From positions 1 through 44,343 of the forward strand of contig JACPPM010000260.1 of the NCBI GenBank assembly GCA_016191015.1: a stretch of DNA of 44,343 nt. Reading direction: 5' to 3'. A program made the position numbers and the translations under genes. Below the pieces are notes generated by a model. The model worked only from the letters and a program-made list of their open reading frames with translations, ran no database searches and was not told the origin of the DNA. The stretch comes from Acidobacteriota bacterium (GTDB lineage Bacteria; Acidobacteriota; CAIWXX01). The stretch's first letter is position 1. The number at the start of each line of letters is the position of its first letter. Positions 20,469 through 24,854 of the stretch are shown here, piece after piece.

Positions 20469-21401
20469 TCAGAGACCGAAGCCTAGTGCCATCCGCAGGA
20501 GCAGCCGGTCGCTGCTTGGGGTCAGTCCGACGGCCGCGCCCGTGTGGAGCATCCAGCCCTTTCCCAGATGGAACATCACCATCGGCTGAAGATAGTGCTG
20601 CTGATCGCGCGGCCGCAGGGCGAGCCTTCGGCTGTCGCCGAGGGCACCGATGAGCTCTACCCCGACAGCGGCCAGGCCAGCCCCCCGATGCTCAGCATGG
20701 GCCCCGCCCGATTCATGATCGGGCCCTTCCGCGTGATGATGAGATGCGCCGAGCTTGTGCATCAGCCCGATCGAGTAGCCGAAATCGGTGAGGCCGCCCC
20801 GAAGATCTGTCTCGTTGATCCAGTTGAAGGCCACGTTCGTGGAGGCGAAGTCGTGTGAAAGGATGAGCCGGGTTTCGAGGATGCGCTCGTCCTTCTCCGG
20901 CTCAGAGCTCTCCTCCTCCTCGTACGGAGGCCTGACCCATCCGCTCACTTCCATCTTGTAACGCGTGGCGTAATCGAGGTGCTCGTATTCCATATAGACC
21001 ACCGGATTGAGCCATTTGTTTTCCTTGAAGAAACTATAGCGGTTCTCCCACCTGAACCCCGTAAACCGGACCGTTCCACCGACATCCTGGAATGCCTCGA
21101 TCATCAGCTCGCTCGCGTACTTGTCCGTCACGCCGTATTCAAGCTCGAGCATCTGAGAGAAGTAGTTGTTCTGGCCCCCGTTCCGATTGGCCGACGAGGG
21201 CACGGTGAAGTCGCTCATGATCATCAGCTCAAGCTCGCCCTTCTCGACGTGGTGGTTGTACGTGGTGAAATAGCCGTCGTTGCCTCGCAACAGCGCCCCG
21301 GACGACAGCAGGCACAGAAGAAACGTCAAGGTGAGAACACCTCCCTTGATCCCGCGACCGGCGGCGGTCTTTCGTGTCATCGTCCATATCGTGTGTGGCA
21401 T
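20469..21401 (-). CDS. Envelope protein with His-rich loop, Fur-box controlled
   Basis: A 310-residue exported protein. The ATG at 21401 is chosen because GGAGG lies 6 bases upstream. The frame stays open for 25 more codons, but those run through the Fur-type box and are not credible. An N-terminal signal peptide (GGVLTLTFLLCLLSSGAL) is followed by a strand-rich body with alternating polar and aromatic residues (WENRYSFF, NPVVYMEYEHLDY, ERILETRLILSHDF) and a C-terminal end MALGFGL, all compatible with an outer-membrane beta-barrel. Between about 230 and 255 lies a loop rich in His and acidic residues (GASHHHAEGPDHESGGAHAEH), a likely divalent-metal binder. With the regulatory box, a role in transition-metal uptake is plausible; the family is not recognised. 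Confidence 0.85.
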   Translation of the reverse strand: MPHTIWTMTRKTAAGRGIKGGVLTLTFLLCLLSSGALLRGNDGYFTTYNHHVEKGELELMIMSDFTVPSSANRNGGQNNYFSQMLELEYGVTDKYASELMIEAFQDVGGTVRFTGFRWENRYSFFKENKWLNPVVYMEYEHLDYATRYKMEVSGWVRPPYEEEESSEPEKDERILETRLILSHDFASTNVAFNWINETDLRGGLTDFGYSIGLMHKLGASHHHAEGPDHESGGAHAEHRGAGLAAVGVELIGALGDSRRLALRPRDQQHYLQPMVMFHLGKGWMLHTGAAVGLTPSSDRLLLRMALGFGL

Positions 21402-21421
21402 CAAATCCTCCAAATTATTAA

Positions 21422-21442
21422 TGATAATGAGAGTCATCATCA
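21422..21442 (-). promoter_or_regulatory. Fur-family operator (iron, zinc or manganese box)
   Basis: A 21-bp near-palindrome that agrees with the classical 21-bp Fur consensus (two overlapping TGATAAT-N-ATTATCA units) at 18 of 21 positions by direct comparison; mismatches are at positions 10, 12 and 17 of the box. It lies 20 bp before the ATG at 21401, on top of the expected promoter or leader of the His-rich envelope gene, so repression by metal-loaded Fur, Zur or Mur is expected. Confidence 0.75.
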
Positions 21443-21607
21443 GAATCATTGTGGCACACGACTCGCCGGGTGTCAACAGCTCTTTTCATTGATGCTCATG
21501 ACTATCCCGGTCGGACGAGTCATCCCCGGGGACCAACCATTCAGACCGATCTCGACGGTCCCGTTCGACGCGCATCTGCGCCACCTGGTGTTCACGTCGA
21601 GACCTGA

Positions 21608-21685
21608 ACGGTCACCAGGCGTGCGGGGGTCAACGTGAAGACGCTCAGGTACTACGAGCGGCGCGAGCTTCTTCAGAAGCCTCGC
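21608..21685 (+). pseudogene. MerR-family DNA-binding domain remnant
   Basis: This 26-codon stretch reads TVTRRAGVNVKTLRYYERRE followed by LLQKPR, the helix-turn-helix and wing signature of MerR-family regulators (consensus AGV-x-x-x-TLRYYE-RxGLL). An in-frame stop lies directly upstream, and the downstream frame loses all similarity. No effector domain is left. It is convergent with the cysteine-rich membrane protein gene at 21719. It suggests that a MerR-controlled module once stood here. Confidence 0.7.
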
Positions 21686-21718
21686 GCCGTGGCTCCGCGC
21701 CTCAGACGCACCGGCCCA

Positions 21719-22261
21719 TCAGCCGGCTTGCTGGTCCGTTGCGCCGCAGCACGGAGTCGTCTTCGTACCAGGCGCTGAGGTCGGCTTATGACGGTTCATC
21801 CACAGCCAAGCCCCGATGATTGAAATCGCAGTCATCAGTGCCAGCAGTGGTTTAGCCAGAGGAAGGAACGCCGCTCCGAACAGATTGAGGTACACCGCCA
21901 GCACCGGAGAGCCGCAGCATCCAAGAAGGTAGCAACCTGCCACGGCAAGAAACCCGGACAGAGTGACGCCTCCAATGGCGAGAGTCCGGCCTGCACAGAA
22001 ATGCTGCTCGCGGTATCGACGGAGCGCATTGGCGGCGAAGGCGATTGACAGGGCGTAAGAGAATCCGAGGTAGTAGCCTTGAGTCTCGATGTAGCGTTGT
22101 AACCATGAAACGTCCGTGACAGCCGGAACCGCCACCCAGCGGTCTTGCACCAAGCTCTGTTCGGGGGAAATCCCGATCCATACGTAGTGGACAGCCGCCA
22201 CGACGAGAAAGACTCCCGCTGGAAGGAAGGCTCGCCGGAAGAGTTGGGTGGAGGGGATCAT
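21719..22261 (-). CDS. Polytopic membrane protein with two vicinal Cys pairs
   Basis: A 180-residue inner-membrane protein with about four helices (near 12-30, 63-80, 95-113, 118-152). A GCYLLGCCGSP motif puts Cys110 and the pair Cys115-Cys116 inside or at the edge of the third helix, and the soluble tail holds another pair, Cys171-Cys172 (TTPCCG). Membrane CC pairs plus a cytosolic CC pair are also how MerT-type mercury importers hand on thiol-reactive metal ions, but overall similarity to MerT is not evident. The ATG overlaps the stop of the upstream OB-fold gene (ATGA, 22258-22261). It is the last gene of the arsR operon. I do not recognise the family. Confidence 0.85.
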   Translation of the reverse strand: MIPSTQLFRRAFLPAGVFLVVAAVHYVWIGISPEQSLVQDRWVAVPAVTDVSWLQRYIETQGYYLGFSYALSIAFAANALRRYREQHFCAGRTLAIGGVTLSGFLAVAGCYLLGCCGSPVLAVYLNLFGAAFLPLAKPLLALMTAISIIGAWLWMNRHKPTSAPGTKTTPCCGATDQQAG

Positions 22262-22692
22262 CTTGAATTCCCAGTCGGTGCTCTCGCCCTTTCGAGTGCC
22301 GACGCAACGAAGATCAACTTCCCCTCAGATTGCCTCACCCTCCCCTCCACTTTGACCAAATCCTTGACCGACGGCATAGCCCCGGTCCAGAGAACCGGCA
22401 ACGTGAGCGCACAGTCGTCGATCCCACACAGCTGAAACTCCCGGAGGTCGATCAGCGCGAGAGTTTGCTTGTCCGCCGAGACAGCACTGACAACGCCCTC
22501 AATCTGCACCTTCTCGCGGTGGCGGTCTACGTCCTTCATGAGCGCGTCCACTCCGAGGATCGGATCATTTCGAGACACCGACACACTTCCACTCAGCTTG
22601 GGATCACTGCGGGAAGCAACATTCGAATACCAGATGAACGCCACGGCCGTCACACCGATGGTGCAGCAACCAATCACGACCCATCGCTTCAC
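22258..22692 (-). CDS. Membrane-anchored OB-fold-like small protein
   Basis: A 144-residue protein with an N-terminal membrane anchor (WVVIGCCTIGVTAVAFIWY), then an extracytoplasmic domain. The pattern KVQIEGVVSAVSADKQTLALIDL, LPVLWTGAMPSVKDLVKVEGRV and GKLIFVAS is that of an OB-fold like the CcmE/BOF group. Cys89 and Cys94 (CGIDDC) could form a disulfide or a metal site, and Cys9-Cys10 lie in the anchor. The start is GTG 22692, overlapping the upstream stop by four bases (GTGA). An upstream in-frame ATG at 22728 lies inside the MtrA-like gene and is less likely. The role may be binding or delivering a ligand outside the membrane next to the CC membrane protein. Confidence 0.85.
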   Translation of the reverse strand: MKRWVVIGCCTIGVTAVAFIWYSNVASRSDPKLSGSVSVSRNDPILGVDALMKDVDRHREKVQIEGVVSAVSADKQTLALIDLREFQLCGIDDCALTLPVLWTGAMPSVKDLVKVEGRVRQSEGKLIFVASALERARAPTGNSR

Positions 22693-23882
22693 GAGGACTT
22701 CTCTTCGCAAGGGGACGAGCAACCACATCCAGGCCCGGCCTCCACGATCGTACGATGCTCCGGGGCCCCATCCTGAACATAGGACTCACCCGACGACAGA
22801 GCGCGTTCCGCGCGGGCCAGCTCCCTGCCAAGGTAGGCGGCGTGGTCCAGGCGCGAGATGAGGCCCTTGTCGATAGCAGGAGCATAGAGCTCTGCCGCGG
22901 TGCGACCCGCGATGATCAGGTCGAGCACGCCTTCATTCCCGTAGTGCTCCAGGGAAAGGACGTGCCGATGGCGATCGACATAGACCACGAAGTAGCCCGC
23001 TGGGTCCGGCATCATCCGGTCGAGCAGATATCCCTGCACGGGATTCAGCGCGAGCTCTTTGGCGAATGGATCGGCAGGGCCTGGAGATCGCGCAGCGCAC
23101 GTTCGGGCCGCGTCGAGAACGGCGGCGGGGTTGGAGTTGCCCACGAGATCAACGACCTCGACGGTGCTCCGGAAATGATCGACCGCTTCCAGGGAGACAT
23201 TCTTGATTATCGGGCGCCTGCCATTGGCGCCGGCGATGCGAGAACGATCGTCCAGTCCCGAGCGCGCAAGGGCGACGAGGGACTGACCCGGCAGATGCCC
23301 GATGGCCTGGCGCGAATCCAAGCCGCATACAACGAGGAACCGGATGTTCGGGTTGGCCACGATGTTCAGGACGAGTCGCTCGATACCGAGATTCTCCGTC
23401 TGGAGCGTACCGACGATGCTCGTCTCCGGACCGGCTTGCCGGACGGCTGTCGCGGCGAGTTGGTCATCCGCCAGAGTACAAACTGCGACGGGTGCTTGAT
23501 ATCGAAGCACGGCATACGAGCCAGGCAGCGGTGGCCAGCCCTGCCGCGCCTCCACTTCATTGGTCGGACAAGCATCCAGCTCCACCCCATGGTCGGCCGT
23601 CGCCTGATTGAGGGCGTTAGTCGCAAGCGCCGGATAGCAGACCTCGCATCCCAGGCACTCGTACTGGACTTCCACCAGTCGCCCGCGAGCGGCGTGTACG
23701 GCGGCCTCAAGGTCAGGCGCGATCTGTCCCTTCGGGAAGGCGCTCTCAATGGACGCGAGCGAGTTGTGAAGACAGCCACAACTCAAGCACTTTTTCGCCG
23801 CCGCGGCTTTCTCCAGTTGCGCGACCGCTTCCTGCCTCCCGCTCTCCTCGATCCTCGTCTGTTCCGCGCTCATAGCTTTCAT
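22689..23882 (-). CDS. Cys-rich corrinoid-binding MtrA-like / DUF4346 protein
   Basis: A 397-residue cytoplasmic protein. N-terminal region: Cys32/35/37 (CLSCGC) and Cys76/79/82 (CLGCEVC), possible metal or Fe-S sites. Residues ~118-270 match the A subunit of tetrahydromethanopterin S-methyltransferase: APVAVCTLADD, TLQTENLGIERLVLNIVANP, NIRFLVVCG, then GHLPGQS. His196 in GHLPGQS corresponds to the corrinoid-coordinating His of archaeal MtrA (His84 in Methanothermobacter, from memory). Residues ~290-375 match DUF4346 (PAGYFVVYVDRHRHVLSLEHY; SRLDHAAYLGRELARAE). The tail has CGCSSPC (386-392). The start at 23882 overlaps the arsR stop (ATGA); a 63-codon upstream extension lies in arsR and is rejected. 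Archaeal MtrA acts in the Mtr complex; no other Mtr subunits occur here. Methyl transfer to or from a thiophilic element is an inference. Confidence 0.88.
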   Translation of the reverse strand: MKAMSAEQTRIEESGRQEAVAQLEKAAAAKKCLSCGCLHNSLASIESAFPKGQIAPDLEAAVHAARGRLVEVQYECLGCEVCYPALATNALNQATADHGVELDACPTNEVEARQGWPPLPGSYAVLRYQAPVAVCTLADDQLAATAVRQAGPETSIVGTLQTENLGIERLVLNIVANPNIRFLVVCGLDSRQAIGHLPGQSLVALARSGLDDRSRIAGANGRRPIIKNVSLEAVDHFRSTVEVVDLVGNSNPAAVLDAARTCAARSPGPADPFAKELALNPVQGYLLDRMMPDPAGYFVVYVDRHRHVLSLEHYGNEGVLDLIIAGRTAAELYAPAIDKGLISRLDHAAYLGRELARAERALSSGESYVQDGAPEHRTIVEAGPGCGCSSPCEEKSS

Positions 23883-24244
23883 TTGCGGGCGTCCTCGGTG
23901 AGGCACAGCCCTTGATCCAGGAGTCTCGGCACGCAGGGGTCCACGACGCGGTAGTAGACCTGGTTGCCGTTGCGTCGGGAGCCAAGGATGCCGCGATTCG
24001 CGAGCCTCTGGAGCTGGTTGGAAACGGCCTGCGGTCTCATGCCGAGCGCCTTGGCGAGGTCGCCCACACACATCTCTCCTGCTCGAACAAGGGCATGAAG
24101 CAGCCGGAGGCGGGTATCATTTGCAAGCACCTTGAATATCGCCATCAAATCGACGGCCTGTGGCGTTGAGAGCAGGGGGCGTTCTCCGAGCTCGGGTTTC
24201 GGGCAGCACTTGGTCAGATTCGAGGAACGCACTTTCCTAGTCAT
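23879..24244 (-). CDS. ArsR/SmtB-family metal-sensing repressor
   Basis: A 121-residue winged-helix repressor, the usual size. The core is VDLMAIFKVLANDTRLRLLHAL, EMCVGDLAKALGM, QAVSNQLQRLANRGIL (recognition helix) and a wing ending NGNQVYYRVVD. Candidate metal ligands are Cys13-Cys14 at the N terminus, Cys59 in the helix that carries the arsenic site of ArsR, and Cys104 and Cys114 near the C terminus. All-sulfur sites point to thiophilic ions such as As(III), Cd, Pb or Hg rather than Zn or Ni. It heads the operon, and its promoter overlaps an ACAC-N6-GTGT dyad. It overlaps the next gene by four bases. Confidence 0.93.
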   Translation of the reverse strand: MTRKVRSSNLTKCCPKPELGERPLLSTPQAVDLMAIFKVLANDTRLRLLHALVRAGEMCVGDLAKALGMRPQAVSNQLQRLANRGILGSRRNGNQVYYRVVDPCVPRLLDQGLCLTEDARK

Positions 24245-24261
24245 TGCATCATTCCACTACC

Positions 24262-24291
24262 ACACTATGCTGTGTAACGTCGCTTTGTCAA
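24262..24291 (-). promoter_or_regulatory. arsR operon promoter with overlapping dyad operator
   Basis: Read on the minus strand: TTGACA (24291-24286), 16-bp spacer, CATAGT (24269-24264), about 20 bp before the arsR ATG. The -10 is covered by ACAC-N6-GTGT (24262-24275), a perfect 4-bp-arm dyad that is the obvious candidate ArsR operator. Confidence 0.65.
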
Positions 24292-24311: not shown

Positions 24312-24489
24312 GATTCGGAGTACGGTCCCCTCGAAACACGCGCCAAGTCATCCTGAGGAATCCGCCGCAGGCGGATGACGAAGGATCTCATGCAGGACTC
24401 GTCGGCATGGCAATGAGATCCTTCGGGCGCCTGTGGCGCCCTCAGGATGACGGAACCGGCACGCGCTACGCTGAATCGTACTCCGAATC
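24312..24489. repeat. Nested-palindrome interspersed element, copy 2 (complete, 178 bp)
   Basis: Terminal 13-bp perfect inverted repeats (24312-24324, 24477-24489). Inside these are outer arms TCATCCTGAGG/CCTCAGGATGA (24348-24358, 24440-24450), a hairpin in each half (24361-24375 and 24425-24441), and inner 12-bp arms (24380-24391, 24413-24424) around a 21-bp centre. Arms and layout match copy 1 at 1-125. One end cuts metF at the codons after its AGI motif; the other end stops 20 bp before the arsR -35. No target duplication or transposase is visible. Confidence 0.85.
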
Positions 24490-24830
24490 CCGGCGTGTTC
24501 GAGGTCCTGCAGGATTCTCTCGACATCTTCGCGCGAGTGTCCGCGGCAGGTAAGGTGTGCCATCGACTCGACTCCGATCTCCCGTTGCAGCCGTCGAACC
24601 ACCTCCAAAGTCCGCTCCCGAGAGCTCCCATCCGCCCGGTAGGCGATGGATACGAAGGGAGGATCTAGTGCAGACAGCTCTTCGAGAGTCGAGAAGAGAA
24701 AAGCCGTGGCTTTGTCGGTCTTCGGCGGATAAAACTCGAACGAGAAGGAAGGCATTGCCTTTTGCAGGTGGACGGACTTCGCCCCCGGGTCGCTCCACGT
24801 GAATGTGATCCCCTTTTTCGCGTTGCCCAT
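24484..24830 (-). pseudogene. metF: 5,10-methylenetetrahydrofolate reductase, truncated
   Basis: The first ~115 residues of a MetF/MTHFR-type protein: SFSFEFYPPKTDKATAFLF, then PPFVSIAYRADGSSRERTLEVV and ESMAHLTCRGHSREDVERIL. The active-site Glu of FEFYPPK is present. A normal MetF has close to 290 residues. Similarity stops at HAGIR, exactly at the terminal repeat of the element at 24312-24489, and nothing of the missing C-terminal two thirds is found beyond it. The start at 24830 has GAGAGGAGG upstream. The intact form would make methyl-tetrahydrofolate. The fragment cannot be active because most of the FAD barrel is missing. Confidence 0.85.
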
Positions 24831-24854
24831 GGCGTTCCTCCTCTCAGGATGCAT

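What the first reader, a model, noticed from the sequence alone, without database searches (positions are those of the whole stretch)
21719..24291. Four-gene overlapping operon: ArsR, Cys-rich corrinoid MtrA-like/DUF4346 protein, OB-fold anchor, vicinal-Cys membrane protein
The sequence shows one promoter and three consecutive four-base stop/start overlaps (ATGA, GTGA, ATGA), so the products are made together. The ArsR has five Cys and no obvious His site. The second protein joins a cobamide-binding domain known from methanogen MtrA to CxxCxC, CxxCxxC and CxC-x3-C clusters. The last gene has CC pairs in a membrane helix and in the tail. Combining a thiophilic-metal sensor with a methyl-carrying corrinoid domain and a CC membrane protein suggests sensing, transport and corrinoid-based methylation or demethylation of a metal or metalloid. 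It is not the HgcAB mercury-methylation pair, whose corrinoid domain comes from a different family. The function is inference.
Basis: partly seen in the sequence, partly recalled or inferred. Interest (0 to 1): 0.88.

Follow-up and report, generated by a model that had tools for sequence, protein, structure and literature searches.

The report
Corrinoid-protein operon for toxic metalloid defence
A bacterial gene set, switched by a repressor of the type that senses antimony, carries an unstudied vitamin-B12-binding, cysteine-rich protein that recurs in metal-resistance gene clusters of many unrelated bacteria, and it may be the missing enzyme by which microbes methylate (or demethylate) antimony and arsenic.

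Summary
The four-gene overlapping operon is real (minus strand, 24244-21719; promoter and junctions confirmed). The ArsR is AntR-like: its best solved relative is 6uvu, near-identical to plasmid genes annotated antR (antimonite-responsive repressor). I found a shared 18-bp operator, TTACAC-N3-ATA-GTGTAA, at AntR-like promoters in several phyla, at plasmid antR, and at window 24260-24277. The second protein joins an invariant six-Cys module, an MtrA cobamide domain with all checked cobalamin contacts kept (including the cobalt-ligating His), and DUF4346. Thirty-two such proteins from many phyla and plasmids were collected by sequence alone: 25 lie near an ArsR gene, 28 near some metal(loid)-resistance gene. 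One sits between an Acr3 pump and antCA homologues. A separate MtrA branch with a CFeSP-type Fe-S domain sits beside acr3/arsP. Cys-less Chloroflexota relatives have no such context and mostly lost the His. The metalloid link is therefore well supported, more for antimony/arsenic than for metals in general. Corrinoid methyl transfer is the best mechanism but is inferred. The last gene is a four-helix membrane protein with an invariant CxxxGCCGSP motif. No description was found in the searchable literature; genes for Sb methylation are stated to be unknown.

The parts
24264..24291 (-). sigma-70-like promoter TTGACA-16-CATAGT
   Evidence: expected 0.8 such sites in 4 kb
24260..24277 (-). AntR-type operator TTACACAGCATAGTGTGG, overlapping the -10 element
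   Evidence: 13 of 15 consensus positions; only site in the 44-kb window scoring >=12 (0.45 expected in shuffles); only exact hit to TTACACNNNATAGTGTRR in the 6.4-Mb genome
23879..24244 (-). ArsR/SmtB-family repressor, AntR-like; Cys13, 14, 59, 104, 114
   Evidence: (6uvu, 141.8 bits)
22689..23882 (-). Cys6 module (res. 32-82) + MtrA cobamide domain (111-271) + PterinBD-DUF4346 (293-371) protein
22258..22692 (-). membrane-anchored, OB-like small protein (GTG start overlaps previous stop; alternative ATG at 22728)
   Evidence: homologues in 10 related loci
21719..22261 (-). four-helix membrane protein with invariant C110-xxx-G-C115-C116-G-S-P motif and CCG tail
   Evidence: no Pfam or PDB relative

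Best explanation
This is an inducible defence operon against a soft metalloid, most likely Sb(III) and/or As(III)/methyl-As(III). Step 1: the AntR-like repressor sits on the TTACAC-N3-ATA-GTGTAA operator over the promoter and leaves when its Cys pair (104/114) binds the metalloid. (Protein and operator family shown by comparison; induction inferred.) Step 2: the second protein binds a cobamide with a protein His on the cobalt in its MtrA domain. (Shown by residue conservation and fold; binding itself not measured.) Step 3: its invariant six-Cys module holds either an Fe-S cluster that re-reduces the cobalt or the metalloid substrate. (Inferred.) Step 4: a methyl group, probably from a methyl-pterin held with the help of the DUF4346 domain, passes through methyl-Co to the thiol-bound metalloid, giving a methylated species that is exported or lost. 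(Inferred.) Step 5: the CC membrane protein, and in other loci a thioredoxin-like protein plus CcdA, passes the metalloid or thiol electrons across the membrane; the OB-like protein is an anchored accessory. (Inferred.) It would work like HgcAB does for mercury, with unrelated parts.
For: AntR assignment: 6uvu is the best PDB hit by far (E 8.9e-41; next 2.7e-15), and a near-identical plasmid gene is annotated antR in an antR-(62 aa)-P1B ATPase operon. The operator is shared between AntR-like genes of different phyla. Context: 25 of 32 Cys-module proteins have an ArsR gene within 4.5 kb and 28 of 32 some metal gene, against 1 of the 11 Cys-less Chloroflexota relatives L076-L086. L009 holds ArsR-LMW phosphatase (ArsC-like)-Acr3-MtrA protein-DsbD-AntC-like-AntA (60% identical to plasmid AntA; Acr3 above NCBI's cut-off). 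Planococcus plasmids: ArsR-HMA protein-P1B ATPase-MtrA protein. Corrinoid: Tyr, Thr-Glu, Gly, Asn and His equivalents of the 5laa cobalamin site are conserved; the model matches 5laa with TM-score 0.87. The His and Glu are invariant in every protein with a Cys or Fe-S module, while the His is lost in 8 of 11 Cys-less ones. A second MtrA branch carries the CFeSP gamma-type [4Fe-4S] domain and lies beside Acr3 and ArsP. The genome has 12 other B12-binding proteins over cut-off. An AntR-like gene on a Mycobacterium plasmid is followed by arsM, so this regulator type does sit ahead of a metalloid methyltransferase. Live gut microbiota methylated As only when given methylcobalamin (PMC2920899).
Against: No chemistry is shown. 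The domain name 'PterinBD' is Pfam's; pterin binding was not tested. The six-Cys pattern is not a standard ferredoxin pattern. Aerobic, plasmid-bearing hosts (Planococcus) fit less easily with a Co(I) enzyme. Some AntR-like relatives sit next to cadD, and several MtrA neighbours are of other ArsR types, so the substrate may differ between loci. No dedicated methyl-donor enzyme is conserved next to it.
Confidence: 0.42

Rival explanations
1. Metallochaperone/sequestration: the Cys module and Cys tail bind Sb(III)/As(III) and hand it to a pump (AntA, Acr3, RND, CC protein). The MtrA and DUF4346 domains are scaffold or use the cobamide as a redox switch, with no methyl transfer.
For: In L009 and on the Planococcus plasmids the protein is in one operon with efflux pumps. 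The Planococcus copy carries an extra metallothionein-like Cys insert. Cys count is high and conserved.
Against: It does not explain why the cobalt-ligating His-Glu pair and the other cobalamin contacts are invariant, nor why a second MtrA branch in ars clusters carries a CFeSP-type activation domain.
Confidence: 0.27
2. Demethylase: the corrinoid takes a methyl group off methyl-arsenic/antimony (or methylmercury) and passes it to a pterin, detoxifying organometal(loid)s without oxygen.
For: AntR is reported (from memory of the paper cited in PMC10616229, text not held) to respond to MAs(III) as well as Sb(III). ArsP, a permease family known for organoarsenical export, is near L024, L087 and L096. 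A MerB-family gene shares an AntR-like locus in Mycobacterium.
Against: Inorganic-metalloid pumps (Acr3, AntA) are the commoner partners.
Confidence: 0.15
3. Soft-cation (Cd/Pb/Zn/Cu) homeostasis module unrelated to As/Sb.
For: P1B ATPase, RND and cadD neighbours in some loci; CadC-type ArsR beside some members.
Against: The window regulator is AntR-like with an AntR-type operator; Acr3, AntCA and ArsP neighbours occur. Corrinoid chemistry has no known role with Cd or Zn.
Confidence: 0.1

Closest known systems
ant operon (antRCA; AntR repressor, AntA Sb(III) P1B ATPase)
   Same: Repressor family (6uvu), conserved Cys, operator; L009 even combines the MtrA protein with antC/antA homologues
   Different: The window has no AntC or AntA; an MtrA/DUF4346 protein, an OB-like protein and a CC membrane protein take their place
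MtrA of the methanogen Mtr complex (5laa, 5l8x)
   Same: Cobamide domain fold and cobalamin-contact residues, including the cobalt-ligating His
   Different: Bacterial, soluble, with an added Cys6 module and DUF4346; no other Mtr subunits; scores below NCBI's MtrA cut-offs
HgcAB mercury methylation
   Same: Works-like analogy: corrinoid plus Cys/Fe-S chemistry acting on a thiophilic element
   Different: HgcA uses a CdhD/PF03599-type corrinoid domain; none is found here, and there is no HgcB ferredoxin
Corrinoid iron-sulfur protein (CFeSP, AcsC/CdhE)
   Same: The related branch C in acr3/arsP clusters has the CFeSP-type [4Fe-4S] domain fused to MtrA
   Different: The window protein has a different Cys6 module instead
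MerT/MerF-type and CcdA/DsbD-type membrane proteins
   Same: Cys-Cys pair before a Pro in a helix plus a Cys pair in the tail; CcdA/DsbD replaces the CC protein in some loci
   Different: No detectable sequence or fold relationship

Membership tests
AntR (Sb(III)-responsive ArsR) | sequence relationship closer than to other ArsR/SmtB proteins | tested here: met
   6uvu 141.8 bits, next 59.6; plasmid antR 58.6% identity
AntR (Sb(III)-responsive ArsR) | C-terminal Cys pair (DPC...GLC) reported to bind Sb(III) | tested here: met
   C104 and C114 aligned with AntR and conserved; the role of these Cys is recalled, not tested
AntR (Sb(III)-responsive ArsR) | operator shared with annotated antR | tested here: met
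   (L034:5949 and window 24260)
AntR (Sb(III)-responsive ArsR) | response to Sb(III)/MAs(III) | not testable with these tools
   needs binding or reporter assay
ant operon | antC and antA follow antR | tested here: not met
   window genes are MtrA/DUF4346, OB-like, CC; present in L009 only
MtrA domain (PF04208) | Pfam match and cobalamin-contact residues incl. axial His | tested here: met
MtrA of MtrA-H complex | score over NCBI cut-off for TIGR01111, other Mtr subunits | tested here: not met
   126.9 vs 249.15 bits; no other Mtr subunit seen among the window's ORFs
NF002128 (full-length MtrA/DUF4346 model) | score over curated cut-off 568 | tested here: not met
   472 bits, full-length alignment 5-392: same architecture, below cut-off
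HgcAB | PF03599-type corrinoid domain and HgcB ferredoxin | tested here: not met
CFeSP | PF04060 [4Fe-4S] domain | tested here: not met
   absent in the window protein; present in L096
MerT/MerF/MerC or CcdA/DsbD (CC membrane protein) | Pfam or fold match | tested here: not met
metalloid methyltransferase (functional class) | methylates Sb/As | not testable with these tools
   assay needed

The most novel reading that the evidence does not exclude
A previously undescribed class of corrinoid-dependent, metalloid-inducible enzymes (Cys6-MtrA-DUF4346, and a sister form MtrA-CFeSP[4Fe-4S]) that methylates or demethylates antimony/arsenic, spread by plasmids and horizontal transfer through many phyla, and the missing genetic basis of methylcobalamin-linked antimony methylation.
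Probability: 0.4. Interest if true: 0.93.

Novelty: new variant of a known kind. Interest (0 to 1): 0.76.

Why it matters
Antimony and arsenic methylation controls how these poisons move and volatilise. A 2021 review states that the genes for antimony methylation are unknown and that methylcobalamin may be involved (PMC8453088). The operon gives a concrete, testable candidate with its own inducible regulator, and it would extend corrinoid-based element methylation beyond HgcAB. It would also reassign a protein family now annotated as a methanogenesis subunit in bacteria that are not methanogens.

Tried and rejected
Membership in HgcAB and in the Mtr complex (rejected). A link of CC to MerT/MerF/CcdA by Pfam, by profile search of PDB and by Foldseek (nothing significant). 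A methylene-THF reductase partner: an N-terminal MTHFR fragment lies upstream at 24351-24854 but looks truncated and no metF recurs in the other loci, so I do not count it. Whether AntC is the MtrA protein: no, AntC is a 62-aa Cys-rich protein. A strict rule that Cys-less relatives lost the His: a first regex suggested it, but the alignment shows 3 of 11 keep it. Random sampling of 246 genomes of the L008 phylum gave no new members: the family is patchy. The literature found no DUF4346 paper and no MtrA/ars-operon paper; subscription journals are not held, and the AntR paper could not be read.

Full report
Observation. The four genes lie on the minus strand between 24244 and 21719. The junctions are the ATGA, GTGA and ATGA overlaps described, and a good sigma-70-like promoter precedes arsR. 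Pfam finds ArsR, MtrA (E 6.5e-39) and PterinBD-DUF4346 (E 7.8e-23); the two small proteins have no family. The full length of the second protein matches the NCBI model NF002128 but below its cut-off (472 versus 568 bits), so the architecture is known to annotators only under a methanogenesis name.

The regulator. The best solved relative is 6uvu (141.8 bits; the next hit is 59.6). Plasmid relatives almost identical to the printed part of 6uvu are annotated 'antimonite-responsive transcriptional repressor AntR' and are followed by a 62-aa Cys-rich protein and a P1B ATPase. Window Cys13 or 14, 59, 104 and 114 align with AntR Cys; Cys104 and Cys114 are kept in nearly all AntR-like neighbours of the MtrA proteins. 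That AntR binds Sb(III) through this C-terminal pair and also senses MAs(III) is my recollection of the AntR paper (cited in PMC10616229; not held).

The operator. A dyad TTACAC-N3-ATA-GTGTAA lies directly before AntR-like genes in L008, L010, L011, L013, L014, L015, L017, L070 and L074, before annotated plasmid antR (L034), and before AntR-like plasmid genes of Massilia, Bacillaceae, Staphylococcus, Lactiplantibacillus and Mycobacterium. The window copy is at 24260-24277, over the -10 element. It is the only exact match in the 6.4-Mb genome. The regulatory circuit is therefore that of the AntR family, and the operon is its local target.

The second protein. Relatives were gathered by sequence only: 22 loci from the genome collection, phylum samples and plasmids. 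In 29 aligned members the residues C32, C35, C37, C76, C79, C82, H196, E312, H313 and H347 are invariant. Residues that hold cobalamin in Methanothermus MtrA (Tyr18, Thr53, Glu54, Gly57, Asn64, His84; PMC4915002) correspond to Y123, T162, E163, G166, N173 and H196 and are kept in the Cys-module proteins apart from one Tyr-to-Phe. The predicted model (pLDDT 88) matches cobalamin-bound MtrA 5laa at TM-score 0.87 over the domain. Corrinoid binding is thus very likely, though not measured. The host genome has 12 further B12-binding proteins over cut-off.

Three branches. Branch A (Cys6-MtrA-DUF4346; window) spans Planctomycetota, Verrucomicrobiota, Chloroflexota, Synergistota, Bacillota, Acidobacteriota, delta-proteobacterial and other bins, plus Planococcus plasmids and a Paraburkholderia megaplasmid. 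Branch B is a set of 11 Cys-less Chloroflexota proteins (L076-L086): 8 of 11 lack the cobalt-ligating His and their surroundings are ordinary. Branch C (MtrA plus a CFeSP gamma-type [4Fe-4S] domain, PF04060 and NF003195) lies beside true Acr3 pumps and ArsP permeases in L087 and L096. The His and Glu of the cobalt site are invariant wherever a Cys or Fe-S module is present.

Context. Of 32 branch A proteins 25 have an ArsR gene within 4.5 kb, and 28 have at least one of ArsR, CC, OB, Trx, CcdA/DsbD, Acr3, ArsP, P1B or RND; among the 11 branch B loci only one (L077) has an ArsR gene. CC and OB each occur in 10. In L007/L074 the order is ArsR-OB-CC-MtrA, so the association survives rearrangement. 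In L003/L071, L004/L072, L022 and L023 a membrane-anchored thioredoxin-like protein and a CcdA-type protein take the place of OB and CC. L009 runs ArsR, LMW phosphatase (ArsC-like), Acr3, Cys-rich protein, MtrA protein, DsbD, AntC-like, AntA (60% identical to plasmid AntA against 38-41% for other P1B ATPases). On Planococcus plasmids the order is ArsR, HMA protein, P1B ATPase, MtrA protein, next to a transposase.

The CC protein. Twelve homologues share C110-xxx-G114-C115-C116-G-S-P and most have Cys in the tail; the model has four long helices with a break at CCGSP. No known family or fold matches. By anatomy it resembles mercury-type transporters and CcdA-type thiol proteins; this is analogy only.

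Mechanism. I favour an AntR-type switch controlling a corrinoid enzyme that moves a methyl group between a carrier and a thiol-bound metalloid. Methylation is preferred because inorganic-metalloid pumps are the commonest partners, because the CFeSP-type domain of branch C is used elsewhere to activate cobalt for accepting methyl from methyl-pterins, because an AntR-like gene is followed by arsM in Mycobacterium, and because methylcobalamin alone allowed As methylation by live gut microbiota (PMC2920899). Demethylation and plain chaperoning remain open. The clade-level link to soft metal(loid) resistance I hold at about 0.9, cobamide binding at about 0.85, methyl transfer to or from the metalloid (either direction) at about 0.55.

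Novelty. The paper library returned no work on DUF4346 or on MtrA in ars/ant operons, and a review states that the genes for Sb methylation are unknown (PMC8453088). The library lacks most subscription papers. I rate it a new variant of a known kind (metalloid-resistance operon); if the chemistry is confirmed it would be a new class of enzyme.

Noticed in passing
window 24351-24854 (-): N-terminal third of a methylene-THF reductase (PF02219 E 4.5e-24, profile 5-101 of 287), apparently truncated, 100 bp upstream of arsR on the same strand; it would make the methyl donor if whole, but no metF recurs in the other loci.
   Followed up: partly
window ~21619-21700 (+): In-frame MerR-like helix-turn-helix remnant (VNVKTLRYYERRELLQKP), just past the end of the CC gene, by eye only.
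   Followed up: no
window 20469-21476 (-): 335-aa protein with a His-rich stretch and no family, possibly outer-membrane, same strand directly downstream of the operon with its own promoter-like site (21476-21448).
   Followed up: no
L087 and L096 (MtrA at L096:6596-7435): MtrA fused to a CFeSP-type [4Fe-4S] domain, next to acr3, arsP, CcdA and thioredoxin genes: a second corrinoid protein type in ars clusters.
   Followed up: partly
L030:5458-6837 (Planococcus plasmid pA30H1; also L031, L033): MtrA/DUF4346 protein with a metallothionein-like Cys insert, after a P1B ATPase with an unusual SCSC motif in place of CPC, on small plasmids next to an ISL3 transposase.
   Followed up: partly
L036-L038 (Bacillaceae, Staphylococcus and Lactiplantibacillus plasmids): AntR-like repressors with the same operator stand near cadD (directly before it in L036 and L038), so AntR-type sensing may not be limited to antimony.
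   Followed up: partly
L076-L086 (Chloroflexota): MtrA-DUF4346 proteins without Cys module, most without the cobalt-ligating His, in ordinary surroundings: function unknown.
   Followed up: partly
L035:5971-10571 (Massilia putida plasmid): AntR-like gene heading an uncharacterised cluster with a barrel-like protein, an OB-like small protein and a MacB/FtsX-type ABC exporter; L088 also pairs OB-like with a MacB permease.
   Followed up: partly
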